Positions 6,507 through 42,573 of a DNA stretch of 43,361 nucleotides are shown one piece after another. A program made the translations under genes and the position numbers. This DNA comes from Paraglaciecola polaris LMG 21857 (GTDB lineage Bacteria; Pseudomonadota; Gammaproteobacteria; Enterobacterales; Alteromonadaceae). Within the stretch, counting starts at the first letter, position 1; every line of letters begins with the position of its first letter. The stretch is taken from contig NZ_BAER01000091.1 of NCBI RefSeq assembly GCF_000315055.1, forward strand, positions 1 through 43,361. Direction: 5' to 3'. The notes beneath the pieces were generated by a model that did not search any database, was not told where the DNA came from, and was given only the letters and a program-made list of their open reading frames with translations.

Positions 6507-7558
6507 TTACTCGTTATCCATGCCTGGTTTTTGCCATACACGCACGTACTCAATGGCAAAATCAACCACCCCATCGTCTTTTTCACCTTGAGGGCTATTA
6601 GCTTCAAGATCAGCTTTTGACTCAGGGTAACCCCGCCAAGGAAACGTCTCTTGGTCTAGCCACAAGTGCATGGCCTTATCGATCACGTAACCTTTTTTAA
6701 AGCCGCGTTTTTTAGCCCATTGCTCAATCGTCTCTTTTGATGCTTGACTAAAAAGCTCACCATCAATGAAGTACCGTATACCGCTGTGAGTCCATTCGAA
6801 CCCATAAGTATGGAAATCGTCAGCCACTCTAAAACCAAGATCCTTGGTTTCGGTGTAGGTCACGTTTTTACCGTTTTCTTGACCTAGGTTGGGATTCCAA
6901 TCGTGCAGCGACCACCACAAGTCACGATCTCTGTGGGCTTGGCCTTTAATACGATGACTACCGAAGTGCTCAAACATATCCAGTTCAAGCTCACTGTCAT
7001 TTCGTTGGCCGTTCTCAGTTTCATGGCGCGTCATCCAAAAAGCACTAGAGACTTCCGCATCGGCAGCCTTCGCGCGAATTTCCATGTAGCCATATTTGAA
7101 AATTTTGCGATTAATTAACGCTGCCGTAGTGATATTTTCATATTTACTGATAACTTGATCAGCCCCCATGGATCACTCGCTTGCTCACTAAAAGGAAAAT
7201 CGGGCTCCCAGCGAGTTTCAAGCATCAACTTGCCGTCTTCCAAGCGATAATTACGACCAGAAAACTGTGATGGTGCACGGCCAATCCACACTTCACGCTC
7301 AGGATGATCGGGATCTTTATAAACCGGCTTGCCATTTTCAAATTTACCCACCACATACCAACGATCCTCATCTAGGCTGCTGCCTTCGAATTCGTCACTG
7401 ACGTCCGTGTTTAATACCCAGCCGCCAGCATTGCTTGGATCAGAAAGAGGCATAACCTGGTCTGATGCAGCCCCTGATGTAGCGCTAAAAAACAGACCTG
7501 CAGCCATAGCACCCACGCCCATAAAGGATCGAAACCACCCAGTGGAATATGTACCCAT
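6507..7558 (-). pseudogene. GH16 family glycanase, frameshifted
   Basis: Two overlapping frames together code for one GH16 enzyme of about 350 residues. The first part (7558 down to about 7163) has a signal peptide (cleavage near SGAA|SDQ) and the entry strands of the fold, including WIGRAPSQFSGRNYRLEDGK. The second part carries KYGYMEIRAKA and the catalytic motif E-L-D-M-F-E (Glu192, Asp194 and Glu197 in joined numbering), then the C-terminal strand VDFAIEYVRVWQK. Adding one G to the G5 run at 7163-7167 joins the frames as SDPWG-ADQVISKYE. The sequence style is that of red-algal galactan hydrolases (agarase, porphyranase or carrageenan type), but the substrate cannot be settled. It may be a sequencing error or a real null allele. 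A GGGAGAAGG ribosome site precedes the ATG. Confidence 0.8.
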
Positions 7559-11201: not shown

Positions 11202-11813
11202 CTATAACCAGCCATTTTGGTGGGCTATTCGTGCCGCTTCGATGCGGTTTTTGGCATCTAACTTACTGCATGCCGAAGATAAATAGTTACGCACCGTGCC
11301 TGGCGACAAAAACAGTTTACTGGCAATGTCTTCGGTAGACAGGCCGTCTTTGGCCAAGCGCAAGGCCCGGCGCTCTTTGTCCGACAACGGATCTTTTTCC
11401 ATCCACGATTCAACCATTAACTCGGGTGCAATGGCACTGCCCCCTTGATGGACTTTTTGAATAGCAGCAATCAGCTCGTGAGAGGGGGAGTCTTTAAGCA
11501 GGTAGCCTTTCACCCCTGAGTCCATTGCCCGGCGCAAATAGCCACTTCTGGCAAAGGTGGTCAAAATGATGGTTTTGCATGACATTTTAGCCTCAAAAAG
11601 GTGCTGGGCTAGCTCTAACCCCGTCATATCTGGCATTTCAATATCGCTAAGTACAATATCCACTTGTTGTCCGTGCTGGTATTGCATGTAATCAAAGGCC
11701 AGTTTGCCAGTGGCGCAGCTATGCACAACCTGTAAGTTGTCTTCTAAATCAAGAATGGTCGCCAAGGCATTGCGTAGCATGGTTTGGTCTTCTGCCAATA
11801 GGATGTTAATCAT
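11202..11813 (-). CDS. DNA-binding response regulator, NarL/DesR type
   Basis: 203 residues: an N-terminal receiver with the acidic pair in LLAEDQ, phosphoacceptor Asp57 in LSDIEMP and Lys in GYLLKDSP, then a LuxR-type helix-turn-helix at about 141-203 (LSDKERRALRLAKDGLSTED onward). It overlaps the kinase gene upstream by 8 bases, so the two are translationally coupled. It presumably controls the adjacent ABC exporter genes through the inverted repeat at 14869-14901. Confidence 0.9.
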   Translation of the reverse strand: MINILLAEDQTMLRNALATILDLEDNLQVVHSCATGKLAFDYMQYQHGQQVDIVLSDIEMPDMTGLELAQHLFEAKMSCKTIILTTFARSGYLRRAMDSGVKGYLLKDSPSHELIAAIQKVHQGGSAIAPELMVESWMEKDPLSDKERRALRLAKDGLSTEDIASKLFLSPGTVRNYLSSACSKLDAKNRIEAARIAHQNGWL

Positions 11814-12972
11814 GCGTTACCTCTCGTTCAGGCGTGTGCGCTTTACTGTGTTTTTGCATGGGTAAGGTTACTTCACTCAATGTGCCATTGAAATCACCAC
11901 CGCTTTTGACTTGTAAAGTGCCGTTAAGCTGCCCTACACGCTCTTCAATGCCTTGAATGCCAAATCCGCTACGTGCGCCTTGCTCATAGCCTTGACCATC
12001 ATCATAAACACTGAGCACAATCTGCTCGTTTTGTTTTTTTATCCTAGCGGTGACTTTGCTTGCTTTAGCGTGACGAAGAATGTTGGTCACCAATTCGCGC
12101 AGCACTATGGCTAACTCTTTGTTCGCCACAGGATCCAATTCAATGAATTGCTCGTCTAGGTTGTCAAACTGGTGATCAAAATCAATATCGACCCCAGCGA
12201 ATACATTTTTAGCGTTAGCCAACTCACTGAGTAAATCACTGGTACGATAACCGGATACCACTTCTCGCACTTGGCTCAGAGCATCTCGGGCGATATCTTC
12301 CAACTGCTTTATTTCCACCCTAGCTTTGGCTAAATCTTTGTCTAACAGTCGCCCAGCCAAGTCTGCTTTTAGGGTGATAACCGAAAATGTATGGCCGATT
12401 AAATCATGTAAGTCTCGGGCGATGCGCTCGCGTTCGGCAACCTTAGCTAGGCGCTGGGTTTCTTTGCGCGATAAGACCAATGCTTGCTTGTTTTGCTGTA
12501 GCGCATATTGATAGGTATTCATCAGCCCGACAATGACAGTAAAAGCCAAGCCTGGGACATAAAAATAAATCCCTAATTTGAATACAAAGCTTACTGCACA
12601 CATCCACAGTAATATGCCAAAGACAGTCGCCACCGCAAACTTAACTGATTTTAAACGACTGCACATTGCCCCGGCATAAATGAAAAATGTATTAGCCGTA
12701 GGGGTGAGTAAAGCAGCCAAGCTGCCTATCACTAAGATGGCAATGATATGATGGATAAGCTGATTGTTCGGTGCCCAGTAACAATGAAAATACACAGCCA
12801 AAAATGCTAAAGTCGCCAATGCCGCCCATAACAATTCCACTGGATTTTGATACGTAAAGGCCACTGGCACAAAGAAAAATGGCAAATAGATCAACAGTAA
12901 ATAAGGTGTCAGAGGTTCGCTTAAGTTTCTAGGCAACAAGCAATTATCCAGTTTTCGCAGTACTTTGATCAC
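11806..12972 (-). CDS. Sensor histidine kinase, DesK type
   Basis: 388 residues. The N-terminal half has about five or six hydrophobic membrane segments (about 25-155) with almost no periplasmic domain, so it probably senses the membrane itself or an agent in it. A short coiled coil leads to a HisKA_3 domain with phosphoacceptor His189 in RERIARDLHDLIGH, and a C-terminal ATPase domain with the DDGQGYEQGARSGFGI G box. This layout is that of DesK and of kinases linked to peptide- or drug-exporting ABC systems. It lies 47 bases after the permease gene, in the same direction. Confidence 0.88.
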   Translation of the reverse strand: MIKVLRKLDNCLLPRNLSEPLTPYLLLIYLPFFFVPVAFTYQNPVELLWAALATLAFLAVYFHCYWAPNNQLIHHIIAILVIGSLAALLTPTANTFFIYAGAMCSRLKSVKFAVATVFGILLWMCAVSFVFKLGIYFYVPGLAFTVIVGLMNTYQYALQQNKQALVLSRKETQRLAKVAERERIARDLHDLIGHTFSVITLKADLAGRLLDKDLAKARVEIKQLEDIARDALSQVREVVSGYRTSDLLSELANAKNVFAGVDIDFDHQFDNLDEQFIELDPVANKELAIVLRELVTNILRHAKASKVTARIKKQNEQIVLSVYDDGQGYEQGARSGFGIQGIEERVGQLNGTLQVKSGGDFNGTLSEVTLPMQKHSKAHTPEREVTHD

Positions 12973-13019
12973 GTATTCCCTTTCCTTGTATGCGCGTTTA
13001 TGTGCTTTTTCTATTCTGG

Positions 13020-13832
13020 TTAGACGCTTTTTTTGTTAAACGCTAACATGGCCGAAGCGAAAAACAACGCTGAGAATAACACGAGTATCAACAGATGCTG
13101 TATAAGCGACCCACCCGCGTCTTGCCCGACAACCTTTAGGGCTAATTGCGACAAATGATAAGGTGGCAAAAATTGAGCAAATGACTGTAAGTAATCCGGC
13201 AACATAGTGATGGGTATCCATAAGCCGGAAAGAAACGATAACGGTAAATAAATCACGTTAACCACAGCTGGGGCGCTTTCTGCTTTAAGGAATAAACCTA
13301 GGGTTAGGCCAAGTAGACAAAACGGTAACCCGCCGATAATAAGAATGCCTGATAACATCAATATTTGCAGCAATGATAAGCTCACTCCAGCCAGACCAAA
13401 CGCAACAACCCCTAAGGTAAGCAACACAATGACAGAGAACCCCATAGAGACAAACAGGCGACTCACAATTTGTGCGGACGCGGGCATGGGAGAGGTCTCT
13501 TTTATATCTAACCAACCTTGACCGCGTTCAACAGCGAGCCCTGCACCAAATGAAAATAGCGCAGGCCCTATCACGCCAAACGTGCCATAGGTACACAATA
13601 AAAACGTAGCGGCTTGCGGATCGTGTTGGTTCATCAGTACGCCAAAAAACAAATAGAAAATCGCAGGAAACAAAGTTGCCGGTAATGCAAACGCTGGATT
13701 ACGAATACTCTTTAGCCATTCAAATTTAGTTTCAAGATAGAAAAGCTTAGCCGTTTGCTGCGTGGTCAATTGCAGTGCCTCAACATCTATATTGGCATTC
13801 GGTGACGTAGAAATAATGTTTGAATTGCTCAT
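13020..13832 (-). CDS. ABC-2 type transporter permease
   Basis: 270 residues with six predicted hydrophobic segments, typical of ABC-2 exporters (drug, bacteriocin or lipid export). The PLSFLSGLWIPITMLPDYLQ segment is the usual signature between helices 5 and 6. The N-terminal tail (about 35 residues) is cytoplasmic. Its start overlaps the ATPase gene stop by four bases, so the two form one exporter. Substrate unknown. Confidence 0.87.
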   Translation of the reverse strand: MSNSNIISTSPNANIDVEALQLTTQQTAKLFYLETKFEWLKSIRNPAFALPATLFPAIFYLFFGVLMNQHDPQAATFLLCTYGTFGVIGPALFSFGAGLAVERGQGWLDIKETSPMPASAQIVSRLFVSMGFSVIVLLTLGVVAFGLAGVSLSLLQILMLSGILIIGGLPFCLLGLTLGLFLKAESAPAVVNVIYLPLSFLSGLWIPITMLPDYLQSFAQFLPPYHLSQLALKVVGQDAGGSLIQHLLILVLFSALFFASAMLAFNKKSV

Positions 13833-14803
13833 GCGTACTTTCCTTGATCCATATTGTTGTCGTTTAACTGTGTATACGCATCTTCTAGACCCGCACTTGA
13901 AACCGTTAAGTCTTGAATATCAGGTTGCTGTCTCAGCAGTGCAGTCAGGGTTTGATTCACATTACGGCTGGCTAACTCAGTAAACTTGCCACTCACCCGA
14001 ACATGCTCAACCGCTGGGATCTTTTTGTATGCAATCATGGTCTTGCTATTGGGCTCACCCCAGGGATCACTGACACTGAAGCGGATCGTCGAGTGAGAGG
14101 CACGTGCTTTTATCTCACTTGTGCTGCCGCGTTGAATAATGTCCCCCTGCTTAAGCAATACAATCTCATCTGCTAGGCTGTCGGCTTCTTCTAAATAATG
14201 GCTGGTTAACACAATTGCGGTGCCCGCGGCTTTAAGGTCAAGAATGGCTTGCCAAAGCCCTTTTCGGGCATCTACGTCCATGCCCACACTTGGCTCGTCT
14301 AAAAATAGCAACTTAGGGTTACCACAAATGCTCAAGGCAAACAGTAGTCGCTGCTTTTCACCACCAGACAGCTTCTTAGAGTAGCGGTGCTCCATACTTT
14401 GTAATCCCGCGTATTCGATGACTTTTTGATATGCCAGCGGATTAGGGTAGTAGCTTTGAAAAAGTTGAATATGCTCTTTTATTTTTAGGGTTTCGGGTAG
14501 CGACGCCACTTGCAATAAAGCCCCCGACTGACGCCTTGCCGCCAATGATCCTGGCGGGCAGCCGAACACACTGACTTCGCCCGCATCAGCCTTGAGTCGT
14601 CCAAGCAAAATATTGATTAAGGTTGTTTTCCCCGCGCCGTTAGCGCCAAGAATCGCTAACACTTGGGAGCAGTGAATATCTAAGTTGATACAATTGAGGG
14701 CTGCTTTACCGTTAAAGCTTTTGCCTACGCCTTGCAGACTAGCAATCACCTTGCCCTGTTGCCAAGTTAAGTGACCGGATACCGCGGTGGAGGAATCTAG
14801 CAT
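13829..14803 (-). CDS. ABC transporter ATP-binding protein
   Basis: The frame is open from 14848, but the ATG at 14803 has an AAGAAAGG ribosome site at a 7-base distance and is the better start (about 324 residues). Walker A LGANGAGKTTL, signature LSGGEKQRL and Walker B LLFLDEPSVGMD are all intact. The C-terminal region beyond about residue 215 resembles the DrrA/CcmA-type extension of ABC-2 exporters. It is the first gene of an ATPase-permease-kinase-regulator operon with the operator candidate about 65 bases upstream. Confidence 0.9.
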   Translation of the reverse strand: MLDSSTAVSGHLTWQQGKVIASLQGVGKSFNGKAALNCINLDIHCSQVLAILGANGAGKTTLINILLGRLKADAGEVSVFGCPPGSLAARRQSGALLQVASLPETLKIKEHIQLFQSYYPNPLAYQKVIEYAGLQSMEHRYSKKLSGGEKQRLLFALSICGNPKLLFLDEPSVGMDVDARKGLWQAILDLKAAGTAIVLTSHYLEEADSLADEIVLLKQGDIIQRGSTSEIKARASHSTIRFSVSDPWGEPNSKTMIAYKKIPAVEHVRVSGKFTELASRNVNQTLTALLRQQPDIQDLTVSSAGLEDAYTQLNDNNMDQGKYA

Positions 14804-31010: not shown

Positions 31011-32054
31011 ATGCCCTCATTTTTACCATTGGCGAAATGGTTGTTAGCCATTTCGCTTTTTTCTGCGACTCAGGTTTTCGCTCATGACTCCCATGCGCTT
31101 GGCGAAATCCTGGTGAAAAAAAACCACGCCCCGGCTTTTGAAGTTATCGTACTCGGAGACAGCGGTGGTATCGAAGATGGTAATCTAAGTGCTTTTTTAC
31201 TGCGAGGGGTTAACGAGCCCAACTATGTGGCCCTAGATGCTGGCACGTTGGTTAACGGTATTAATCAAAGCGTTAAGCGCGGCGCATTCGCCGATTTAGC
31301 CTTAGCTGATGATAACAAATGGGGTACGACCGGTACCATTTTGCGTGATCACGTTAAAGGCTACTTACTCAGCCATGCCCATCTTGATCATATAAATGGC
31401 ATGTTAGTCGCTTCGCCTGAAGATAGCGCAAAAAACATATACGCTTTGCCGTCGGTGAATAACATGATTGGCGAAACCTATTTTAATGGCATAGCCTGGG
31501 CCAATTTCAGTGATCGCGGCATACCGCCTTTACTCAATAAATACCATGTGGTGGATTTGCTACCAGGCAAAACAACCACGATTGCCAATACAGAACTAAA
31601 AGTGACCGCGTTTAGCCTCAGCCACCCAGTTGAGTCCAGTGCCTTTGTCATTGAGCAGGGTAACGATATGTTTGTATATTTTGGCGATACCGGAGCAGAC
31701 ATAGTAGAAAAACAGGGCAAGTTAGCAGCCATTTGGACTTATCTAGCCCAGCAGATTAAGCATAAAACCTTACGCGGTATCATCATTGAAACGTCATTTG
31801 AAAATGAGCGCCCTCATAACTTACTGTTTGGTCACCTCACGCCTGATTTACTGATGGCCGAGCTGGCTAGTTTAGCCGCTAAAATTGATGGCGACGCCCC
31901 ACTGAAAGATTTAACAGTGCTTATCAGTCATATTAAATATACTTTGGCCAAAAACGTTGACCCTAGAGCGACCATCAAGCAACAGCTAAATGACGCCAAT
32001 CAGTTAGGACTGAATATTATTATCCCTAAGCAAGGTCAAAAATTGCTTTTTTAG
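31011..32054 (+). CDS. cpdP: Periplasmic class II 3',5'-cyclic-nucleotide phosphodiesterase
   Basis: 347 residues with a signal peptide (cleavage near VFA|HDS). The metal motif SHAHLDHINGMLVASP fits the PDEase_II signature (HxHLDH), with a further His in FSLSHPVESS and the Asp in VYFGDTGAD, a metallo-beta-lactamase-type fold. The family hydrolyses cAMP; Aliivibrio fischeri CpdP is the periplasmic example. The ATG begins one base after the hemY stop, so it is very likely co-transcribed with the haem genes. No functional link is known from the sequence. Confidence 0.88.
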   Translation: MPSFLPLAKWLLAISLFSATQVFAHDSHALGEILVKKNHAPAFEVIVLGDSGGIEDGNLSAFLLRGVNEPNYVALDAGTLVNGINQSVKRGAFADLALADDNKWGTTGTILRDHVKGYLLSHAHLDHINGMLVASPEDSAKNIYALPSVNNMIGETYFNGIAWANFSDRGIPPLLNKYHVVDLLPGKTTTIANTELKVTAFSLSHPVESSAFVIEQGNDMFVYFGDTGADIVEKQGKLAAIWTYLAQQIKHKTLRGIIIETSFENERPHNLLFGHLTPDLLMAELASLAAKIDGDAPLKDLTVLISHIKYTLAKNVDPRATIKQQLNDANQLGLNIIIPKQGQKLLF

Positions 32055-32138: not shown

Positions 32139-33296
32139 TTATAAACACAATTCTCGTAACGGTATGGTGGCTGCGCCAATGGATACCGGGTGTTTATCTA
32201 CACCTGATACCACAATTTTAGGCATAGGGCGTTTAGCTCCCCGTCTAAACTGGGCGTATACATCAATTCGCGGTATCACCATCTCAGCCAACTCTTTAGG
32301 AATGTGTCCGCCTAAAATAATCGCCTCGGCATCAAGCAAGGCAGAGCAACAGGTCGCGACCAAGTCGAAAGAATCTTGCACTTTGAATATCCATTCTTCA
32401 ACGCCAGGCCAGTCCGGATCGAACTCTTCATGCAGGTTGTAGATTGAACTGAAATTAACGCCATTTTTCTTCAATATACGTTTCAGTAACTCTAGATTCG
32501 GATGGGCGTATATTTTGGTTGGTAACATGTCGCCCAGCTCCCCTGCGTTGCCGTAGCTACCGCGCAGTACTTCGGCATTGTTTACCACCCCACCACCAAA
32601 CGCTGACGAAACAAATAGGTATACGAAGTTTTTATATTGTCGGCCTACACCCGTAACACCTTCACCAGCAGCCGCGCCAGTGCCATCATTCACGACCCAG
32701 GTTGGCAATGTAAAGTGGCTAGACACTATTTGTACTATGTCCACTTGTGACCACTCTTCTAACATGTGGTGGGTATTCATCTTGCCGTCCATTGAACTGA
32801 AAAAGCCAGATATCCCCACCCCCATGCCTAACGCACGGCTTTCATCAAGCTTACATTCATCCGTTAGCTCACTGACTAAGGTTTGTGTGGTCTCAAGTAC
32901 ATGGGCAATGCTCATGTCGTCCATTTCACGCAATTTGGTCGCAATCACATTACCGGCAAAGTCCATCACGGCCACGCCGATTGCATCCAGCAATATAGAG
33001 ACACCAAAGGTATAGGCGTATTCTGGGTTTAGCTCGATGCCAAAGCCTGGTTTACCTTTTGGATTAGGGATCATTTCTTCGGTTTGGCGCAGCACTTTAG
33101 CCTGAGTGAGGCCTTTCAATAAACGGGATACCGTTTGTTGGGGAATTTTAGTCGCAGCCACAAGTTGACTTTGAGTCACTCGCCGTTCCCAGAAGACAAT
33201 TTTGATAATATCACGCTCAATATCTTGAAAAAGCTTACTGCCTTTACCTAGCGTAAACCCTGAACGTAAATATTGACTGTTGTCGATTGAAAACAT
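32139..33296 (-). CDS. ROK-family transcriptional regulator
   Basis: 385 residues: an N-terminal winged helix (about 25-70, VTQSQLVAATKIPQQTVSRLL) and a C-terminal ROK/actin-like domain with VVNDGTGAAAGE and NAGELGDMLPT. The usual ROK zinc site (H followed by CxCGxxGC) is missing after NAGELGD, so the protein probably does not bind zinc there and is unlikely to be a sugar kinase. It is the last gene of the minus-strand group with receptor, symporter and glycerate kinase, and is the obvious candidate regulator of the hexosyl-glycerate genes. Confidence 0.85.
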   Translation of the reverse strand: MFSIDNSQYLRSGFTLGKGSKLFQDIERDIIKIVFWERRVTQSQLVAATKIPQQTVSRLLKGLTQAKVLRQTEEMIPNPKGKPGFGIELNPEYAYTFGVSILLDAIGVAVMDFAGNVIATKLREMDDMSIAHVLETTQTLVSELTDECKLDESRALGMGVGISGFFSSMDGKMNTHHMLEEWSQVDIVQIVSSHFTLPTWVVNDGTGAAAGEGVTGVGRQYKNFVYLFVSSAFGGGVVNNAEVLRGSYGNAGELGDMLPTKIYAHPNLELLKRILKKNGVNFSSIYNLHEEFDPDWPGVEEWIFKVQDSFDLVATCCSALLDAEAIILGGHIPKELAEMVIPRIDVYAQFRRGAKRPMPKIVVSGVDKHPVSIGAATIPLRELCL

Positions 33297-33415
33297 CTGT
33301 AATACATCTACCTTAAAACGCTATAGCCTATTTGAAACCCCGGTAAAGAACAAGAAACTATCGCTGGGGACGTCTCTAGTTCGTTACCTTTGGGATAGAT
33401 AAAGCAAGCAAATTT

Positions 33416-33445
33416 CACGTTATACCCATAACTAGCCATAACGTG
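33416..33445 (-). terminator. Inverted repeat after the glycerate kinase gene
   Basis: Perfect 8-bp arms CACGTTAT and ATAACGTG with a 14-base loop, directly adjoining the glycerate kinase stop codon on the minus strand. It could end the receptor-symporter-kinase message or be an operator for the ROK gene. Confidence 0.4.
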
Positions 33446-34684
33446 CTATTCAATAATAATGGCTCGAAAATCGTTAACGTTGGTATTCGTCGGTCCGGTT
33501 ATAACCAAGTCGTTAATTGCGGCAAAAAACTGATGACTGTTATGAGTAGCCAATAGTTCACTGGCATTAACGCCTGCTGATGCAGCGCGGGTTAACGTCG
33601 TCTGGTCAATATAAGCACCTGCCACGTCTTTACTGCCATCAACACCATCGGTATCACAAGCCATGGCACAAATGCCCGCTACACCATCAAGTTCAAGCGC
33701 TAAGGCCATTAAATATTCTTGATTAGGCCCGCCGTCTCCATACTCTTTGCCTACAGTAACGGTTAATTCGCCGCCTGAAAACAGCATGACGCGCTGCCCC
33801 TTCGCCTTACATGCTAACGCGTGTTTGGCATGTATTTTAGCGACGTCTCTGGCTTCACCTTGAATATCGTAACCCAGTACTTGTGTTTGCCAGCCCTGCT
33901 TTTGAGCCACATCAATAGCAGCATCAATGGCGTGCTGTGCGTTTGCCACAATGTGATATTCGCTTGCAACCTTATGCCCAGGAGACGCTTCTGGTTTCGC
34001 CAGATAATTAGCAATGCTACCCACCGGCGACCAATGATATTTCTGTAAAATGGCCAATGCTTGAGCCTTAGTTGACGGATCAGCAATAGTCGGACCCGAG
34101 GCAATATCGGCGGCGTTATCACCGACCACATCCGAAATCATCAAGGTGACGTGCTTCGATTTAGCCGCCTCGGCCAATCTGCCGCCTTTCACTAGCGATA
34201 ACTGCTTACGCACAGTATTAATTTCATCAATACTGGCGCCGCTTCTGAGTAAAAACTGATTGAGTTGCTGTTTATCCGCAAAGGGTACATCGTCCACCGG
34301 CAAACACATCAGCGACGAGCCTCCACCTGAAATTAAAAACAAAATAGGCGTGGTCGCTGGGGTGCTTTTCACCAAGGCCAGTAGTTGTTTACCGGCAATT
34401 AAACTGTTGTCGTCAGGTGTCGGATGATTCGCTGTGAGTACTTCGATTTTGCCCGTATCACCGGCGCTTTCATATCCGTAACGAGTCACTACCGCACCGT
34501 AACACTTGTCACCCAAGGTTTTGTGTACTTCGGCGGCCATTTCTGCCGCCGCTTTACCTGCACCCACAACGCATATGCCATTGCTGGTATCGAGTTTACT
34601 TAACTGCTCGGCCATGCAAGCGCTAGGCTTGCAAGCTGCGACTGCGGTGTTAAATAAGTCGAGTAAAAAAGCGTGATATTTCAT
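33446..34684 (-). CDS. Glycerate 2-kinase (MOFRL type)
   Basis: 412 residues of the GckA/TtuD-like family: GAGKAAAEMA near residue 42, ISGGGSSLMCLP at about 128, RKQLSLVKGGRLA and ISDVVGDNAADIASGPT in the first domain, and the MOFRL domain at about 290-400 (LFSGGELTVTVG, GGPNQEY, DTDGVDG). It phosphorylates D-glycerate to 2-phosphoglycerate in the cytoplasm. Its ribosome site (TAAGG) overlaps the symporter stop, with only 9 bases between the genes, so translation is coupled. In this cluster it would use the glycerate freed from a hexosyl-glycerate. Confidence 0.93.
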   Translation of the reverse strand: MKYHAFLLDLFNTAVAACKPSACMAEQLSKLDTSNGICVVGAGKAAAEMAAEVHKTLGDKCYGAVVTRYGYESAGDTGKIEVLTANHPTPDDNSLIAGKQLLALVKSTPATTPILFLISGGGSSLMCLPVDDVPFADKQQLNQFLLRSGASIDEINTVRKQLSLVKGGRLAEAAKSKHVTLMISDVVGDNAADIASGPTIADPSTKAQALAILQKYHWSPVGSIANYLAKPEASPGHKVASEYHIVANAQHAIDAAIDVAQKQGWQTQVLGYDIQGEARDVAKIHAKHALACKAKGQRVMLFSGGELTVTVGKEYGDGGPNQEYLMALALELDGVAGICAMACDTDGVDGSKDVAGAYIDQTTLTRAASAGVNASELLATHNSHQFFAAINDLVITGPTNTNVNDFRAIIIE

Positions 34685-34693
34685 GAGAAAACC

Positions 34694-36274
34694 TTAAGCA
34701 AAAGCGGTTGGAATAAACAAACAAAATGCAATCATGGCTGCAAACATGCCCAGCAACAGCACCACATCTTTGCTCGTCAAAATTGACAATGAAATAGGGC
34801 CTTCTGCAATCTCTCTCTCGCTAGACTGATAGGTAAAGGGCTTAATCTTACTCATTAACATCGCCATAATAATCGTCACCACAAAGCCGATGAAGTTCCA
34901 CCAGAACCAAAAGATCTCCGGTGCGATAACCGATATCAGCAAGTTAAACAACACGCCACTAATCAGGCCAATGTTCACGTGCAAACCTGACGTACTTTTT
35001 GTCAACACGGCCAGTAAGAACACCGCGAGAATCGGTCCATAGAACAACGAACCCACCTTGTTAATCGCTTCGATAATCGTTGGCGCGATATTGCCCGCAT
35101 AAAGCGACAAGACTAGGGTCACTGCGCCCCAAACTAAGCCCATGTATTTAGCCAGTTTTAGGTAATTGTTTTGACTCAGCTCTTTGTTGGTTATGCGGCA
35201 GTAATCTTCGATGGTAACCGCTGATAATGAATTAATCGCTGAGCTCAATGACGACATAGCAGCAGCCAAAATGGCCACGACCAACAAGCCAATTAAGCCG
35301 TGGGGTAGGTAGTTAAGAATAAACATCGGCATCATCCAATCTGGATTATCCGTTGGGATCTTTGCCATAAAGCTGGGTTCAGTCATGGCCAGCGTGCCCA
35401 CAATCAAACCTGAGAGACAATATAAAATAGTGATAGGAAAACGAATAACACCGTTGGCCAATATCATATAACGAAGATTTTCTGGATCTTTAGCGGATAG
35501 TGCCCGCTGAGCCTGCGTTTGATCACAGCCGTAATAGGATGCATACAACACCACCCCACCAAATATCATGGGCCAGAAGCCAAAACCGTCACCACTAAAA
35601 CCGTATGAATCAAACTTAATGGCTTGCAAACGATCGGGATCGACATTGGCAACAAAGGCATCGACACCACCTAAATAATACAGGCCATAGCCGATACACG
35701 CGATGGTACCTAACACGATAATGACCATTTGGATGGCGTCACCGTATACCACTGCCTTCATGCCGCCTTGCAGCGAATAAAGCACGGTAATAACCCCAGT
35801 TAACAAGATGGCTTGCCATGCTTCAATACCCATGGTGCCTTGCAAAATGAGGGATACAGCATAAATCATAATGCCGGTAGCAAATGCCCGGCTAAACTGA
35901 AACACTATGCTGATCAATACGCGGGTAGAACGGCCAAAACGTTCTTCAAGGTAATCGTAAATACTGACAATGCCAGCCCGGTACAACTTAGGTAAAATGG
36001 TGGCCAAAATTAGGATCATGGCCAAAGGCACACCTAACTCGTATGACAGCCATTGCATGCCGCCACCTTCACGTAACCCCACAAAAGCGGGGGCTGAAAT
36101 AAAACTAATAGCTGATAGCTGGGTGGCCATGACCGACAACGCCAAGGGTTTCCATCCTAGACTTTTCCCACCCAGAAAATAGTCACTTTTATTTGTCTGT
36201 TCTCGCAACATAAATCCCATGACCAATAGGGCCACCAAATACAATGCAACAATCAAAAAATCTAGTGTATTCAT
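34694..36274 (-). CDS. Sodium:solute symporter (SSS family)
   Basis: The frame opens with a GTG at 36286, but the ATG at 36274 has an AAGAG ribosome site and begins a normal first helix (MNTLDFLIVALYLVALLVM). About 526 residues with 13-14 hydrophobic segments. The SSS-type core is clear: ATQLSAISFISAPAFVGLREGG, YDYLEERFG and a long PTIIEAINKVGSLFYGPIL stretch. It would take up a solute with Na+; the gene order suggests a hexosyl-glycerate. It lies between the TonB receptor and the glycerate kinase. Confidence 0.88.
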   Translation of the reverse strand: MNTLDFLIVALYLVALLVMGFMLREQTNKSDYFLGGKSLGWKPLALSVMATQLSAISFISAPAFVGLREGGGMQWLSYELGVPLAMILILATILPKLYRAGIVSIYDYLEERFGRSTRVLISIVFQFSRAFATGIMIYAVSLILQGTMGIEAWQAILLTGVITVLYSLQGGMKAVVYGDAIQMVIIVLGTIACIGYGLYYLGGVDAFVANVDPDRLQAIKFDSYGFSGDGFGFWPMIFGGVVLYASYYGCDQTQAQRALSAKDPENLRYMILANGVIRFPITILYCLSGLIVGTLAMTEPSFMAKIPTDNPDWMMPMFILNYLPHGLIGLLVVAILAAAMSSLSSAINSLSAVTIEDYCRITNKELSQNNYLKLAKYMGLVWGAVTLVLSLYAGNIAPTIIEAINKVGSLFYGPILAVFLLAVLTKSTSGLHVNIGLISGVLFNLLISVIAPEIFWFWWNFIGFVVTIIMAMLMSKIKPFTYQSSEREIAEGPISLSILTSKDVVLLLGMFAAMIAFCLFIPTAFA

Positions 36275-36341
36275 AATACTCTTCACATATCTGCACGAAC
36301 TAAAACCATACCGCTCGCGCTGCTAAATTAAAAGACGGTGG

Positions 36342-36379
36342 GTAATCCCCCTAGGGGATATTTTCCGTAGGGGGATTAC
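36342..36379. repeat. GC-rich inverted repeat between receptor and symporter genes
   Basis: Perfect 12-bp arms GTAATCCCCCTA (36342-36353) and TAGGGGGATTAC (36368-36379) with a 14-base loop, in the 147-base gap between the TonB receptor and the symporter on the minus strand. No T run follows, so a partial terminator or mRNA-stabilising hairpin that sets receptor above symporter expression is more likely than a full stop. Confidence 0.6.
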
Positions 36380-36421
36380 TCAACCTAAATGGCGCAAGCA
36401 GGCACCGACACACAAACTCAT

Positions 36422-38869
36422 TTAAAAATCATATCTCGCTGTTAGGCTCACGCGGCGTGGTAACACAGGTCGGCCAATGAAGAACTCTCCCCCCGACACT
36501 TGGCTGTTGCCTTGGCGCGGAGAACCTTCGGTAATGCCGTCACTGTCAAACAAGTTCCACACGTTGATACCAACACGAATTCGCTGGTCATTATTGAGCT
36601 CCCAAGAATAACCCGCGTTCAAAGTCGCAACTGTGTGGCTATCAAGCTCAACTGAGTTATCGTCGTTAGCGTAAGCATCACCGAAGTAGCTCAAACCTAA
36701 ACGCGCATCAACAAAGCCGTTGTTGTAAGACACAGCCAGGTTACCGGAGAATTCAGGTTGTCTTCTGGGTTGCTTACCCACGTTAGCGCCTTCACTAAAT
36801 TCAGCATCCTGATAGGTCACGTTACCCTCAAGGATCACTTCATCCGTCATATTCCAGCGAGTAATAATTTCAGCACCTGTGGTTTCAGTAGATTGCTGCT
36901 TAACCACTTCAAGTAGACCGCCAGCCCCGTCATTTTCAAAATCAACTGAACGACGATTATCCAAATTCGCTAAGAACAAAGACGCATCTATGTATAAACC
37001 TTTAGGGAAGTATTTAAAGCCAATCGCGCCTAGGGTGATATCTTCGCCCTCGTAACTTTGCGGCTCACCATTGTCGTTAAACGTAATACTTCTGATCTGC
37101 GGGAAGAAATAACCCGTTGACGCGTTTGCATAAAGGTTAAGGTTTTGGTCTTCCATTTTGTACAACAAGGCAGCAGAGAATGCTGCTTCAGTGGTTGCCA
37201 CTTCACCGTAGGTGAAACGACCATTACCCGTGGTATTAACTTGTAAGTTTGGCGCTAAAAAGGGGTCATCATTGACGACAACCTCCTCGCTGCCTTCTGA
37301 CTTAGTTGTCCCTTCTGCACGCTCAATACGCGCACCCACATCAAATGCCCATTGGTCATTTTCCATTTGGTCGGTGATGTAAAATGCCATGCGCTTGCTG
37401 GTCAAATCTTTGTTGGTATAACTTGTACCTGGCCCTACAACACCGTTTTTCGAATATTGCACTGTCTCACCTGCCTCATTGGTGAAAGACAGATCAACCA
37501 AACGTGCACTATCACCATTGCTAAAGTCGGCCAAATAGCTGGAGATAATGTTGTAATCCATTTGCGAAGAATTGATAAAGAAGGTACCGATATTCACCGT
37601 ATGATCGAAACCGCCGCCTTCTAACTCACCTGTTAAGTTGAATTCAGTACTGAAGAAATCACCGTCACGTTGACGATCGAGTAAGCGGTTACCAAATAAC
37701 TGGTAGTCGTCTGGCAGGGCGTTGCCCGTTTCCGACCATGTATAGTTTGCTGTGCCTAAGGCGCTTAAAACGTCACCATTTGCGGTACGTGCTAAGTTGT
37801 TGGCGTAGCCTTCTTGAGACTCAGGAGTATTGGCAATGCCGTCCCCGTCTAAAAATAAATTGAACTGGTGGTCGTAGCTGGCTACTTTCGCCTTACCCGC
37901 TAAGCGCCAAGTGTCAGTTAAGTCTTTTTCAAAATCGACACCAAATGAACCACCTTCGGTCAAAACACCATTACGAATAGGTGACTCGTACGTGCCATCG
38001 GCTGTGTCATAGCGTAAATCGGCTGCAGCTACGGTTTGCGCAACATAAACGGTTTTGCCGTCATTACCGGTTAAACGTTCACGGTTATCACCATCAAGGG
38101 GTAAAGGCAGGAAGAACTGAACTTGATCATCAATCATTTGACCATGAAAGGTAATATGGCCGTCGTCGAATTCTTTACGAATGTTACCTCTAAGTTGGTA
38201 ACCTTTGGTTTCTAAGCCCGTATCTAAAGGGCCTTCATCGTAACGGTAGAAGCCAGAAATCGCATAATACAGATTTTCATCACTGGAAAGTGCACCACTG
38301 TTATAAAAGTCAGTTCTAACACGGCCTTCTTCCGCCACTTCTACTTGCACTGTGCTTTCAGGATCATCGCTACCCGTGCGAGAAATATAGTTAATAATGC
38401 CAGCGACCGAGCCAGGTCCAAACAAGTTAGATACACCACCACCTACATACTCGACCCTTTCGATGCCGATGTCAGGACGGTAGTACACATCTTGCGCTGA
38501 CGATGTCATGCCAGATTGAAACGCAGGCATACCATCATAGTTAAGCGGCGTGAACTGAAATTGCCCGCCAGAGGGTAAACCGCGAACAAATGCATTAGTA
38601 GCCACTTCACCACCGCCACCTTCTACTTTAATGCCGGGAACACTCATTAGAATATCGGCCTGACTTGAGAAGCCAGTATTTGCTATTTGATCTTTTCCAA
38701 TCAAGGTCGTTTTTGCAGGTGTGTCTGCTTCTGTACGGGCAACGCTTGAACCGGTCACAATGATGTTTTCGAACTCATCGTTATTGGGTGTTTCCGTATT
38801 CGCTTCTTGAGCAAGTAGCGGTGTAGCAAACAATATCGAAATGGCGCAGGCAATAGGTGTCATTTTCAT
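36422..38869 (-). CDS. TonB-dependent outer-membrane receptor
   Basis: 815 residues from the ATG at 38869, which has a GGAG ribosome site; the open frame reaches 38881 through a TTG. Signal peptide 1-20 (cleavage LLA|QEAN), TonB box ENIIVTG at 34-40, plug domain to about 165 (DILMSVPGIKVEGGGGEV, FGPGSVAGIINYISRTG), then a 22-strand barrel with C-terminal Phe (SLTARYDF). It imports a substrate across the outer membrane with TonB energy. Next to the symporter, glycerate kinase and hydrolase, the substrate is inferred to be a hexosyl-glycerate rather than a siderophore. Confidence 0.93.
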   Translation of the reverse strand: MKMTPIACAISILFATPLLAQEANTETPNNDEFENIIVTGSSVARTEADTPAKTTLIGKDQIANTGFSSQADILMSVPGIKVEGGGGEVATNAFVRGLPSGGQFQFTPLNYDGMPAFQSGMTSSAQDVYYRPDIGIERVEYVGGGVSNLFGPGSVAGIINYISRTGSDDPESTVQVEVAEEGRVRTDFYNSGALSSDENLYYAISGFYRYDEGPLDTGLETKGYQLRGNIRKEFDDGHITFHGQMIDDQVQFFLPLPLDGDNRERLTGNDGKTVYVAQTVAAADLRYDTADGTYESPIRNGVLTEGGSFGVDFEKDLTDTWRLAGKAKVASYDHQFNLFLDGDGIANTPESQEGYANNLARTANGDVLSALGTANYTWSETGNALPDDYQLFGNRLLDRQRDGDFFSTEFNLTGELEGGGFDHTVNIGTFFINSSQMDYNIISSYLADFSNGDSARLVDLSFTNEAGETVQYSKNGVVGPGTSYTNKDLTSKRMAFYITDQMENDQWAFDVGARIERAEGTTKSEGSEEVVVNDDPFLAPNLQVNTTGNGRFTYGEVATTEAAFSAALLYKMEDQNLNLYANASTGYFFPQIRSITFNDNGEPQSYEGEDITLGAIGFKYFPKGLYIDASLFLANLDNRRSVDFENDGAGGLLEVVKQQSTETTGAEIITRWNMTDEVILEGNVTYQDAEFSEGANVGKQPRRQPEFSGNLAVSYNNGFVDARLGLSYFGDAYANDDNSVELDSHTVATLNAGYSWELNNDQRIRVGINVWNLFDSDGITEGSPRQGNSQVSGGEFFIGRPVLPRRVSLTARYDF

Positions 38870-39059
38870 GGTGTTCTCCAACTCTTTTTAAGATGGTCAA
38901 TGTCAATGGTGTGTTCGTCTGAAATGAAGCGAACGTTTAACTAATGTTATTAATTTGTTACTTCGAGATTGATTAAAACACACAAAAAAAACATTTACAA
39001 CCCATAATGAGTGCTTTAAGATTCGATTATCGTCAGATAACTCAAAAAGAGCACCCGTT
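38870..39059. promoter_or_regulatory. Divergent control region of the hexosyl-glycerate locus
   Basis: 190 bases between the divergent TonB receptor and hydrolase genes, AT-rich in the middle (about 38940-38995). A short inverted repeat GTTCG/CGAAC (38913-38934 region) and an ACTAAT/ATTAAT near-dyad (about 38941-38955) are the only symmetric elements seen. Promoters for both arms and the regulator's binding site must lie here, but no operator can be named with confidence. Confidence 0.45.
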
Positions 39060-40355
39060 ATGACTACCAATGTTAATAAAGTAAATTCTTCAGAGACTGC
39101 TGCACTAATCAAAAAAGCTAAAGAGACATTGGTTGCCAATGATCTTGGTGGCTATACAGTCCCAACCCATGGCTTGTATCCATTTCAATGGAACTGGGAC
39201 TCTGCTATCACAGCCCTAGGCTGGAAGCACTTCAACGAACCCCGCGCTTGGCAAGAAATCGAAGTATTACTCGACGGCCAGTGGGATAACGGCATGGTGC
39301 CACATATTTTGTTTCATCAAGACTCTACGACTTACTTCCCCGGGCCAGACGTTTGGGGGTCAGACAAGCGTGTTAAAAGTACATCTATTTCCCAGCCGCC
39401 CGTTGTAGCAAGCGTCGTTAAAGACATGTTAGAGACAGCTGACGATAAAACCTTCGCCCGCGGCAAAGCCGAATCATTATTTTCTAGCTTAGTCGACTAT
39501 CACCTATGGTGGTATAAAGAAAGAGATCCACTCAATACGGGTTTAGTGGTCAGTTACCACCCCTGGGAGTCAGGCATGGACAACAGTCCCGCATGGGACG
39601 AGGCCTTAGCGGCGGTACCTTGTGTTGACTGGGAATATGAGCGCCGCGACTTGGGCCATGTAGATTCATCACAACGCCCCCATAAAAGTGAATATGACCG
39701 TTTTCTATTTTTAGTCGACTTCTTTAAAAAGCATAAATTCGACAGCGAAGTCATCTTTAATGAGTGCCCTTATAAGGTAAACGACATAGGTATCATCGCT
39801 ATTTTGCATAAAGGCAGTAAAGATATACTCGCTTTGGGTGAAACTCTGGGTATACAAGATGAACGCTTAGATTACATCGCAGAACGTATTGCCCTCACCC
39901 AAAGCGCCATTTCAACTTTATGGTGCCCAGAAGCACAATACTTTTATTGCCGTAACGTGTTAACCGACACCTTATGTAAGGTACGCACATCGGCAGGCAT
40001 GCTGACCCTATTTGCAGGTTTGGCAAATACCGAGCAAAAAGAAATTTTAAACACCAAAGCTCAGCAGTGGAACGCAGCCAGCCAATATTGTATTGCATCT
40101 ACTCACCCAGAAGAGAGCCGCTATGAGCCACAGCGTTACTGGCGTGGACCAATCTGGCTACACATTAACTGGATGATCGCGCTAGGTTTTGAAAACGAAG
40201 GCTTTCAACAAACCGCAGATAAATTGCAAAGCGACTGTCGTGCATTGGTGGATTTATCTGGTTACTACGAATATTTCAACCCAGAAACGGGCGCAGGTTG
40301 TGGTGGTAAAGATTTCTCTTGGACTGCAGCAATCGCTTTGCATTGGTTGCTGTAA
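39060..40355 (+). CDS. GH63-type glucosyl-/mannosylglycerate hydrolase
   Basis: 431 residues, the size of the bacterial GH63 mannosyl-/glucosylglycerate hydrolases (Thermus MgH, Mycobacterium GgH). An (alpha/alpha)6 barrel with PFQWNWDSAITALGW near residue 41, GMDNSPAWD with the probable catalytic acid Asp174, RYWRGPIWLHINWM at about 359, and YEYFNPETGAG with the probable base Glu404, then FSWTAA. These enzymes release glycerate from alpha-glucosyl- or alpha-mannosyl-glycerate. No signal peptide, so cytoplasmic after uptake. It starts the plus-strand arm of the locus, followed by fructokinase and isomerase. The name rests on motifs and neighbours; other GH63/trehalase-like activities cannot be excluded. 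Confidence 0.8.
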   Translation: MTTNVNKVNSSETAALIKKAKETLVANDLGGYTVPTHGLYPFQWNWDSAITALGWKHFNEPRAWQEIEVLLDGQWDNGMVPHILFHQDSTTYFPGPDVWGSDKRVKSTSISQPPVVASVVKDMLETADDKTFARGKAESLFSSLVDYHLWWYKERDPLNTGLVVSYHPWESGMDNSPAWDEALAAVPCVDWEYERRDLGHVDSSQRPHKSEYDRFLFLVDFFKKHKFDSEVIFNECPYKVNDIGIIAILHKGSKDILALGETLGIQDERLDYIAERIALTQSAISTLWCPEAQYFYCRNVLTDTLCKVRTSAGMLTLFAGLANTEQKEILNTKAQQWNAASQYCIASTHPEESRYEPQRYWRGPIWLHINWMIALGFENEGFQQTADKLQSDCRALVDLSGYYEYFNPETGAGCGGKDFSWTAAIALHWLL

Positions 40356-40384
40356 CGTTTAACGCAGTACATGAAGGGCTTGGT

Positions 40385-41362
40385 ATGAAAAAAATACTCT
40401 GTTTTGGCGAAGCCCTAGTGGACTTGCTGTCGAACACCTTAGACGATGACAGCGTGACACAAGAGTCATTTATTAAATTTGCCGGTGGCGCACCGGCAAA
40501 CGTCAGTGTTGCCGCGGCTAAACTCGGTGGCAACGCGTATTTTTCTGGCATGCTTAGCAGCGACATGTTCGGTGATTTTTTATTGAAATCACTGCAAAAA
40601 CACGGCGTTAAAACCGATTATGTGTGCGTAATGAGCGAAGCCAAAACTGCCCTTGCTTTTGTATCACTCGACGATGAAGGTGAGCGCACCTTCGAGTTTT
40701 ACCGTGATAACAGCGCCGACTTACGATTCGCCTATAGCGACTTTAAAACTCATTGGTTCGAAGATTGTAGCCTGTTTCATTTCTGCTCGAACACACTCAC
40801 TGAGCAAAATATTTATGACAGCACCGCATTCGGCATCAAAATGGCCCAGGATAGTGGTTGTTTAGTGAGTTTTGATATCAATTTACGCCTGAATTTATGG
40901 TCAGCGAACGACATTCCCAGAGTGAAAATTCTACCGCTACTGGCAAGTTGCAACATTATCAAAGCCTCAAAAGAAGAATTACACTATCTGGCTGGTGAGC
41001 AACCCCCAGAAGAGTTTATTCAAGACGTACTCCACAGTGGCTGCCAACTGTTTGTAGTAACTGACAGCTGCCGGCCAATGCATTGGTATACCCAAAGTGG
41101 CCACGCAAGTTATTGCCCCACCAGCGTAAAAATGCTCGACGCCACCGCTGCGGGTGACGCATTTGTTGGCGGCTTACTTTATCAGTTGGGTCAATTAGAT
41201 TTAACCCAACAAAGCCTTAAAGCGCTATGTAAACAGCCGGATAAATTAACCCCAATCATGGAATTTTCCTCACTGTGCGGAGCACATGCAGCTTCTCGTA
41301 AAGGTGCATTCGTCTCGTTACCGTCTCAACAATCACTCGCTGAATTCAGGAGCTCACTATGA
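40385..41362 (+). CDS. PfkB-family fructokinase
   Basis: 325 residues from the ATG at 40385 (the open frame extends to 40319 without a better start). PfkB signatures: FGEALVDLL at the start, GGAPANVSVAAAKLGG at 34-49 and DATAAGDAFVGG at 252-263 with catalytic base Asp258 (the usual GAGD is AAGD, a common variant). Motifs fit fructokinase, giving fructose-6-phosphate. It overlaps the downstream isomerase gene by four bases (ATGA), so translation is coupled. Its place beside a mannose-isomerase-type gene supports fructose as substrate. Confidence 0.87.
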   Translation: MKKILCFGEALVDLLSNTLDDDSVTQESFIKFAGGAPANVSVAAAKLGGNAYFSGMLSSDMFGDFLLKSLQKHGVKTDYVCVMSEAKTALAFVSLDDEGERTFEFYRDNSADLRFAYSDFKTHWFEDCSLFHFCSNTLTEQNIYDSTAFGIKMAQDSGCLVSFDINLRLNLWSANDIPRVKILPLLASCNIIKASKEELHYLAGEQPPEEFIQDVLHSGCQLFVVTDSCRPMHWYTQSGHASYCPTSVKMLDATAAGDAFVGGLLYQLGQLDLTQQSLKALCKQPDKLTPIMEFSSLCGAHAASRKGAFVSLPSQQSLAEFRSSL

Positions 41363-42573
41363 CAACCGGCGCGCCACAATTTACTAGCCCTACATTTCTG
41401 CTTGCGCATATCAGCGACACGCTCAAATTTTATGAAAGCAACGTGGACGACCCTCACGGCGGTTTCTACCAAAACTTTTTAGACAACGGCGAAGTGTACG
41501 ACAAAGGCACACGCCATTTAGTCAGCTCAACACGTTTTGTGTTCAATTATGCGCGGGCCTATCAAGAGTTCGGCCAAGACAAATACCTTGCCCGAGTAAA
41601 ATCTGGCATTGAGTTTATTCGCCGTGCCCACTATATCCCGGCAACAGGCGGCTACAACTGGCTACTGGATGTACAAAACGGCAACGTCACCGCCAAAGAC
41701 CAAACAAACCACTGTTATGGCTTCGCGTTCGTGATCCTTGCCTACAGCTGGGCTTTGCGGGCCGGTATCGAAGAGGCCCGGGAGTATCTGCATGAAACCT
41801 GGCAAACCATGGAAAAACATTTCTGGGACGCCAGCGCAGGCTTATATAAAGACCAATGCAATGCCGATTTCAGTGTGTGCGACAGTTACCGTGGGCAAAA
41901 TGCCAATATGCACACCTGTGAAGCCCTCATTGCGGCCTTTGAAGCCAGTGGTGAACGTCGCTTCCTTGACCGCGCCATTGCCTTAGCCGACAAAATGACC
42001 AACCAACAAGCTGCCTTAATGGGTGGCTTGATTTGGGAGCATTATGATCTCAATTGGCAAGTCGACCTTGAATACAACAAAGCCGATCCGAAGAACTTAT
42101 TTCGCCCTTGGGGTTTTCAGCCAGGCCACCAAACTGAATGGGCTAAGTTATTGTTATTTATCGCTAAGCACGACCAGCGCCCGTGGTTAATTGAGCGTGC
42201 TAAAGCACTATTCGACCAATCATTAGCCGTCGCGTGGGATAACGAGCACGGTGGCATATTTTACGGCTTCGCCCCAGACATGAGTATTTGCGACAACGAA
42301 AAATACTTCTGGGTACAAGCTGAAACCATGTGCTGTGCAGCCTACTTACATCACCACACGGGTGACGCGGTTTATCAACAGTGGTACGACAAAATCTGGC
42401 AGTACTCATGGCAACATATGGTCGATCATCAATACGGCGCCTGGTTCAGAATACTGACTCACGACAATCAAAAAATCGACCAACTAAAAAGCCCCATAGG
42501 CAAAACGGACTATCACACCATGGGTGCTTGTTTTGACGTGCTCGCGTTAATTAAACGCCACCCCATGGCGTAA
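41359..42573 (+). CDS. AGE-family D-mannose isomerase
   Basis: 404 residues of the N-acylglucosamine 2-epimerase superfamily. The (alpha/alpha)6 barrel carries the isomerase residues: Arg59 in SSTRFVFNYARAY, His185 in ANMHTCEAL, His257 in GHQTEWAKLL, Glu322 in FWVQAE and His386 in DYHTMGAC, as in YihS/ManI aldose-ketose isomerases. It would convert mannose to fructose (and to some extent glucose) in the cytoplasm. Directly after fructokinase, this points to mannose to fructose to fructose-6-phosphate. Cellobiose 2-epimerase or sialic-acid-type epimerase activity is less likely in this context. Confidence 0.82.
   Translation: MTTGAPQFTSPTFLLAHISDTLKFYESNVDDPHGGFYQNFLDNGEVYDKGTRHLVSSTRFVFNYARAYQEFGQDKYLARVKSGIEFIRRAHYIPATGGYNWLLDVQNGNVTAKDQTNHCYGFAFVILAYSWALRAGIEEAREYLHETWQTMEKHFWDASAGLYKDQCNADFSVCDSYRGQNANMHTCEALIAAFEASGERRFLDRAIALADKMTNQQAALMGGLIWEHYDLNWQVDLEYNKADPKNLFRPWGFQPGHQTEWAKLLLFIAKHDQRPWLIERAKALFDQSLAVAWDNEHGGIFYGFAPDMSICDNEKYFWVQAETMCCAAYLHHHTGDAVYQQWYDKIWQYSWQHMVDHQYGAWFRILTHDNQKIDQLKSPIGKTDYHTMGACFDVLALIKRHPMA

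What the first reader, a model, noticed from the sequence alone, without database searches (positions are those of the whole stretch)
32139..42573. Complete hexosyl-glycerate (probably mannosylglycerate / digeneaside) utilisation locus
Seven adjacent genes in two divergent arms cover every step: TonB receptor, Na+ symporter, GH63-type glucosyl/mannosylglycerate hydrolase, glycerate 2-kinase, AGE-type mannose isomerase, fructokinase, ROK regulator. Seen: the gene order, overlaps and motifs. Known: GH63 hydrolases of this size split mannosyl- and glucosylglycerate, and MOFRL kinases make 2-phosphoglycerate. Inferred: the substrate is digeneaside, a solute of red algae, entering glycolysis as fructose-6-phosphate and 2-phosphoglycerate. 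It differs from the E. coli mng route, which uses a PTS and an alpha-mannosidase on the phosphorylated substrate.
Basis: partly seen in the sequence, partly recalled or inferred. Interest (0 to 1): 0.85.

Follow-up and report, generated by a model that had tools for sequence, protein, structure and literature searches.

The report
Mannosylglycerate-eating gene cluster, marine bacterium
Seven neighbouring genes in a marine bacterium look like a complete kit for importing the seaweed and microbial solute mannosylglycerate, splitting it and burning both halves; every part is of a known kind, but the combination and its likely DNA switch could be tested directly.

Summary
Seven intact genes lie where stated, in two divergent arms; nearest relatives are Paraglaciecola. 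The hydrolase is closest to Thermus mannosylglycerate hydrolase (190 of 412 aligned residues identical), an enzyme type that accepts mannosyl- and glucosylglycerate about equally (PMC6608630), so it cannot decide the sugar. The isomerase can: a close solved relative is Marinomonas mannose isomerase (204 of 387). Mannosylglycerate is therefore most likely (0.78). Red-algal digeneaside as natural source was not tested. Corrections: fructokinase starts at 40385, and is absent between hydrolase and isomerase in the five distinct close Paraglaciecola compared. Of 80 related loci, 8 have all six partners and 9 lack only fructokinase. New: an inverted repeat (38999-39013) lies in 18 of 18 aligned divergent promoters, with a weaker second site 52-53 bases on. 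The receptor gene has a different tree from its neighbours. Digeneaside degradation genes were already reported in Zobellia (cited in PMC8072126). A good prediction of moderate interest: a new variant of a known kind.

The parts
32139..33296 (-). ROK-family protein (385 aa) with a DNA-binding-like N-terminus; candidate regulator of both arms
   Evidence: Pfam ROK 71.7 bits, over cut-off; MarR_2 24.9 bits, just under its cut-off of 27. A relative lies within 8 kb of the hydrolase in 29 of 80 loci. Binding to the repeat below is inferred.
33446..34684 (-). MOFRL/DUF4147 glycerate kinase; product 2-phosphoglycerate inferred
   Evidence: Pfam 245 and 117 bits; closest solved chain 2b8n, putative glycerate kinase, 247 bits. 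The product is recalled family knowledge, not from a call.
34694..36286 (-). Sodium:solute symporter, inferred inner-membrane importer of the intact glycoside
   Evidence: Pfam SSF 151 bits; TIGR00813 224.9 bits over cut-off 184
36422..38881 (-). TonB-dependent outer-membrane receptor (819 aa)
   Evidence: Pfam plug domain 54 bits, over cut-off; tree differs from those of the neighbouring genes
38999..39013 (.). Inverted repeat AACCCATAATGAGTG, candidate operator (site 1), between the two divergent start codons
   Evidence: A form of it is in 18 of 18 aligned divergent promoters. The degenerate pattern that I wrote from them occurs once in the own genome at 0 mismatches; the reversed control pattern occurs twice.
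39052..39066 (.). Weaker second site CACCCGTTATGACTA, 53 bases from site 1, overlapping the hydrolase start codon
   Evidence: Best match between offsets 20 and 75 lies at 52 or 53 in 18 of 18 promoters; weak in the window itself (6.0 against 21.3 bits; 6 of 500 mononucleotide shuffles reach it)
39060..40355 (+). MGH: mannosylglycerate/glucosylglycerate hydrolase (GH63-type); no signal peptide seen by eye, so taken as cytoplasmic
   Evidence: Pfam MGH1-like_GH 323.8 bits; 190 of 412 aligned residues identical to 2z07
40385..41362 (+). FRK: PfkB-family kinase, probable fructokinase
   Evidence: Pfam PfkB 167 bits; best NCBIfam model fructokinase PRK09434, 198 bits, under its cut-off of 450; best solved chain 3ljs, fructokinase, 268 bits
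41359..42573 (+). AGE-family isomerase, probable mannose isomerase (mannose to fructose)
   Evidence: Pfam 348 bits; 3gt5 525 bits and 5x32 461 bits; 204 of 387 identical to 5x32, which PMC7762179 names D-mannose isomerase (passage)

Best explanation
A locus for growth on 2-O-alpha-mannosylglycerate. The TonB receptor takes the anionic glycoside across the outer membrane and the sodium symporter takes it intact into the cytoplasm (inferred). The GH63-type hydrolase splits it into mannose and D-glycerate. The isomerase turns mannose into fructose, the fructokinase makes fructose-6-phosphate, and the MOFRL kinase makes 2-phosphoglycerate (all inferred from families). The ROK protein represses both arms from an inverted repeat between them, perhaps helped by a second site five helical turns away, until an intermediate releases it (inferred). 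Shown here: gene order, family membership, conserved active-site residues, recurrence of the set and of the repeat. Not shown: any activity, transport, binding or induction.
For: The hydrolase is nearer to Thermus MgH (416 bits) than to mycobacterial GgH (about 200-207 bits); 190 of 412 identical to the former. The catalytic and contact residues that PMC6608630 lists as conserved in MhGgH and characterised MgH (passage) have counterparts in the window protein: Y40, W44, W46, D47, Y92, Q112, G172, D174 (acid), R206, Y212, Y360, W361, E404 (base); I mapped them by eye on the printed alignments and took the positions. A relative of the isomerase's homologue 5x32 converts 67.9% of mannose and 5.4% of glucose (PMC7762179, passage). 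17 of 80 loci have ROK, GK, SSS, TBDR and AGE within 8 kb. In Emcibacter (L063) a short-chain dehydrogenase, a mannonate dehydratase and an SMP-30 lactonase follow the hydrolase, which fits an oxidative mannose route (pathway recalled). The own genome has no PF09488 synthase, so no sign that the solute is self-made by that route.
Against: No specific NCBIfam equivalog cut-off is reached: hydrolase 335 of 550 (GgH), isomerase 220 of 600 (mannose isomerase), glycerate kinase 217 of 550, kinase 198 of 450 (fructokinase). The hydrolase family does not tell the sugar. Two alphaproteobacterial loci (L064, L069) have a ROK-family protein of kinase-like size nearby and no isomerase found, compatible with glucose. 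43 of 80 hydrolase relatives have none of the six partners within 8 kb (18 of these have short flanks).
Confidence: 0.78

Rival explanations
1. The main substrate is glucosylglycerate; the isomerase acts on glucose, or both glycosides are used alike.
For: Thermus and Selaginella MgH cleave both with similar efficiency (PMC6608630); the best NCBIfam model for the hydrolase is glucosylglycerate hydrolase, though under cut-off; a related isomerase has slight glucose activity (PMC7762179).
Against: That isomerase strongly prefers mannose; a glucose route would need only a glucokinase; the hydrolase is nearer MgH than GgH; mannonate dehydratase beside the hydrolase in L063.
Confidence: 0.13
2. A locus for mannosides or small alpha-glycosides in general, the hydrolase having a wider range.
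For: Family GH63 includes alpha-glucosidases (PMC6608630); three further AGE-family genes lie elsewhere in the genome.
Against: Residues that contact the glycerate are kept, a glycerate kinase is in the cluster, and the related MhGgH did not cleave glucosylglycerol or glucosylglycolate (PMC6608630).
Confidence: 0.06
3. Turnover of a compatible solute made by the bacterium itself.
For: MhGgH serves this in mycobacteria (PMC6608630).
Against: No PF09488 match in the own genome (among 14 control genomes it rang in Thermus composti). A TonB receptor and symporter point to uptake. The one-step synthase and glucosyl-3-phosphoglycerate synthases were not searched for.
Confidence: 0.03

Closest known systems
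Mannosylglycerate hydrolase of Thermus thermophilus (PDB 2z07/4wva); others characterised in Rubrobacter and Selaginella (PMC6608630)
   Same: Same hydrolase family, 190 of 412 identical, same catalytic residues
   Different: Here it sits with a TonB receptor, sodium symporter, glycerate kinase, isomerase and fructokinase; the gene context of the Thermus enzyme was not examined
Digeneaside degradation genes of Zobellia galactanivorans (Barbeyron 2016b, cited in PMC8072126; original not held)
   Same: Same proposed substrate and ecological role
   Different: A flavobacterium; its gene list could not be read here, so the enzymes were not compared
E. coli mng system (recalled: MngR, PTS MngA, GH38 MngB)
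   Same: Same proposed substrate
   Different: No PTS or GH38 domain among the seven proteins, no phosphorylated glycoside, ROK-family regulator
Mycobacterial glucosylglycerate hydrolase (6g3n, 5ohc and others)
   Same: Same family and contact residues
   Different: About 200-207 bits; prefers glucosylglycerate; recovery from nitrogen starvation (PMC6608630)
Mannosides pathway of Shewanella with manI and manK (PMC2996990, table row and passages)
   Same: manI assigned to mannoside use, with outer-membrane protein and permeases
   Different: 'mannosyl' occurs 0 times in that paper's main text

Membership tests
MGH1-like GH63-type mannosylglycerate/glucosylglycerate hydrolases | Family profile over cut-off | tested here: met
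   PF22422 323.8 bits against 27
MGH1-like GH63-type mannosylglycerate/glucosylglycerate hydrolases | Catalytic acid and base and substrate contact residues | tested here: met
   Residues named in PMC6608630, mapped by eye on the alignments, positions
Glucosylglycerate hydrolase equivalog NF047898 | Score of 550 bits | tested here: not met
   335.2 bits
D-mannose isomerase (AGE family) | AGE family profile | tested here: met
   PF07221 348 bits
D-mannose isomerase (AGE family) | Equivalog NF051846, 600 bits | tested here: not met
   219.8 bits; yet 204 of 387 identical to mannose isomerase 5x32
Glycerate 2-kinase (MOFRL) | DUF4147 plus MOFRL domains | tested here: met
   equivalog NF041176 not reached, 217 of 550 bits
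PfkB fructokinase | PfkB family profile | tested here: met
   167 bits
PfkB fructokinase | Fructokinase equivalog NF006957, 450 bits | tested here: not met
   198.3 bits
Sodium:solute symporter | TIGR00813 cut-off 184 | tested here: met
   224.9 bits
ROK repressor | ROK domain plus DNA-binding N-terminus | tested here: inconclusive
   ROK 71.7 bits over cut-off; MarR_2 24.9 bits under its cut-off of 27
E. coli-type mng system | PTS transporter and GH38 alpha-mannosidase | tested here: not met
   Neither among the seven proteins; the rest of the genome was not searched for them
Mannosylglycerate utilisation locus | Growth, hydrolysis and induction on mannosylglycerate | not testable with these tools
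   Needs experiments

The most novel reading that the evidence does not exclude
A complete, non-phosphorylating import-to-glycolysis route for mannosylglycerate in marine Gammaproteobacteria, controlled by a ROK regulator dedicated to this one locus through two operators on one helix face (52-53 bases apart), with an outer-membrane receptor exchanged between lineages and a fructokinase that comes and goes; a specific readout of solute flow from red algae, or other producers, to bacteria.
Probability: 0.4. Interest if true: 0.58.

Novelty: new variant of a known kind. Interest (0 to 1): 0.4.

Why it matters
Mannosylglycerate is a solute of some red algae (digeneaside, recalled) and of heat-loving marine microbes, yet the listings seen here show little on how ordinary marine bacteria eat it. 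The locus offers a candidate enzyme for each step, a candidate DNA switch, and marker genes for following this solute in seawater genomes.

Tried and rejected
Literature: ten searches. 'mannosylglycerate' with Pseudoalteromonas (6 papers), with TonB-dependent (1), with Alteromonas (6), and 'mannosylglycerate hydrolase' (11): by title and start of abstract only, none is about this cluster; most were not opened. 'digeneaside' with degrad and bacteri (10) led to PMC6298971 and PMC8072126, which name digeneaside as a substrate of Flavobacteriia (passages). So I do not call the idea new. Most subscription journals and regulon databases were not searchable.

Hydrolase kinship as a test of the sugar: rejected, since characterised MgH enzymes accept both glycosides.

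Order of fructokinase events: the hydrolase+isomerase DNA tree of six Paraglaciecola with two Pseudoalteromonas as outgroup leaves the window's place unresolved, so one loss, several losses or one regain cannot be told apart. The window's gene is nearest that of Pseudoalteromonas (64%) and has the same place and the same 4-base overlap with the isomerase gene as in L004, so I favour loss in the sisters.

Operator caveats: the repeat was seen in, and the pattern made from, the same 18 promoters, which come from few lineages; L013 departs from the pattern at one base. Shuffles were mononucleotide; the second site was reached by 0 to 19 of 500 shuffles (19 in L005). L011, not used for the matrix and with another gene order, has its only match of 10 bits or more (19.5) in the ROK-receptor gap. 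Against: L018 has no match of 10 bits or more; in the own genome the real pattern matches once but the reversed control twice, so one match is no more than chance would give and the place, not the count, is the evidence; at up to 3 mismatches the window has 31 matches against 23.3 expected (8 of 100 shuffles reach it).

Neighbour clustering suffers from a simple ORF caller in GC-rich DNA (the hydrolase cluster held only 66 of 80 loci), so tallies rest on tblastn and on Pfam for 30 neighbour ORFs of ten loci that I chose by hand.
Full report
Observation. The seven genes are there, intact, at the stated span. Leftward from 38881: TonB receptor, sodium symporter, MOFRL glycerate kinase, ROK protein. 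Rightward from 39060: GH63-type hydrolase, PfkB kinase, AGE isomerase. In the longer ORF from TTG 40319 the PfkB match begins at residue 23, the ATG at 40385. G+C of the seven (45-49%) is like that of the window (46%). Nearest named relatives are Paraglaciecola (93% and 91% hydrolase identity). The two genes to the left, a class II cAMP phosphodiesterase and one that I labelled hemY from memory, lie at the same place in L002 and L003.

What the enzymes are. The hydrolase's best solved match is Thermus thermophilus MgH (2z07/4wva), 416 bits and 190 of 412 aligned residues identical, against about 200-207 bits for mycobacterial GgH. The residues that PMC6608630 lists as conserved in MhGgH and characterised MgH (passage) have counterparts in the window protein, mapped by eye. 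The paper's discussion says that Thermus and Selaginella MgH use mannosyl- and glucosylglycerate with similar efficiency while MhGgH prefers glucosylglycerate (passage). So the hydrolase fixes the aglycone (glycerate) better than the sugar.

The sugar. The isomerase matches 3gt5 (525 bits) and 5x32 (461 bits; 204 of 387 identical). PMC7762179 names 5x32 Marinomonas mediterranea D-mannose isomerase, and its own enzyme, modelled on 5x32, converts 67.9% of mannose and 5.4% of glucose (passages). In Emcibacter (L063) the hydrolase is followed by a short-chain dehydrogenase, a mannonate dehydratase and an SMP-30 lactonase, another chemistry that fits mannose (pathway recalled). Against: in L064 and L069 a ROK-family protein of kinase-like size, sugar unknown, is nearby and no isomerase was found.

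Conservation. Within 8 kb of the hydrolase, at 35% identity or more over 150 residues, 8 of 80 have all six partners, 9 of 80 all but fructokinase, 43 of 80 none; 28 of the 80, and 18 of the 43, have under 8 kb stored on a side. Totals: ROK 29, GK 26, SSS 27, TBDR 35, FRK 8, AGE 22 of 80. The full set is in four Pseudoalteromonas, P. hydrolytica, Pseudocolwellia agarivorans, a Kangiellaceae and a Pseudomonadales genome. Of the 43, 23 have a gene clustering with an ABC permease of L019, another import solution. In the own family 57 of 246 genomes match at E 0.001, but only 16 of 246 have a strong match (350 bits or more); the other 41 have only matches under 50 bits. In a draw from the order 5 of 394 match at 1e-80. 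The distribution is patchy.

Fructokinase. In L002, L003, L084, L085 and L086, the five distinct close Paraglaciecola, 21-22 bases separate hydrolase and isomerase (L082 and L083 are contained in L002 and L003). Each of these genomes holds a distant relative elsewhere (31-32% identity; G054 also one of 39%), as does the own genome (33%), which could serve. Fructokinase in the locus looks optional.

Receptor. Quick trees (SH-aLRT only) group Paraglaciecola with Pseudoalteromonas and Rheinheimera for hydrolase (98), symporter (88), glycerate kinase (96), isomerase (94) and ROK protein (99). The receptor tree instead groups it with P. hydrolytica, L011 and Pseudocolwellia (100). Receptor exchange is the simple reading; recombination tests were not run.

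Control. All 18 aligned divergent promoters (window and 17 loci) hold a form of an inverted repeat, consensus AACCCAnnnTGGGTT. The best further match between offsets 20 and 75 lies 53 bases on in 16 of 18 and 52 in 2 of 18. In P. hydrolytica both copies score high (21.6 and 22.5 bits). 52-53 bases is about five turns of the helix, which would suit two dimers on one face (inference). In L011, where the structural genes run in one direction, the motif sits between ROK and receptor. L018 has none of 10 bits or more. In the own genome the zero-mismatch pattern occurs once, the reversed control twice: no second exact target, but the count alone is no evidence. That the ROK protein binds the repeat is inferred.

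Mechanism and verdict. The best reading is a feeding locus for mannosylglycerate (0.78); glucosylglycerate is the main rival (0.13). The own genome has no PF09488 match, and receptor and symporter point to an outside source. Red-algal digeneaside is a plausible source, not a tested one. Digeneaside degradation genes have been reported for Zobellia (PMC8072126, passage; the 2016 original not held), and digeneaside is listed among possible substrates of North Sea Flavobacteriia (PMC6298971, passage). I file this as a new variant of a known kind with a testable switch.

Noticed in passing
36422-38881; L002-L017: The receptor gene has a different tree from the other cluster genes, suggesting exchange of the outer-membrane receptor between lineages.
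   Followed up: partly
L063:1715-3460 and 11297-14192: Emcibacter carries a second, 581-aa MGH1-like protein, and a dehydrogenase, mannonate dehydratase and lactonase beside the hydrolase, perhaps an oxidative mannosylglycerate route.
   Followed up: partly
L020:16799-17698, L026:16773-17639; same cluster in L023-L025: A 3-hydroxyisobutyrate-dehydrogenase-family gene sits beside ROK in loci where no MOFRL glycerate kinase was found, perhaps another way to use glycerate.
   Followed up: no
31011-32054: Class II cAMP phosphodiesterase with a hydrophobic, secretion-like N-terminus (by eye), just before the cluster.
   Followed up: no
6507-7169: Short (220 aa) protein with a partial GH16 match (45 bits).
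   Followed up: no
own genome C133:136196-137251, C132:43612-44613, C132:49306-50337: Three further AGE-family genes, one nearly as strong a family match (333 bits) as the cluster's (348).
   Followed up: no
L018:5499-7220: An alpha-amylase-family gene lies between receptor and symporter in the Woeseiaceae version of the cluster.
   Followed up: no
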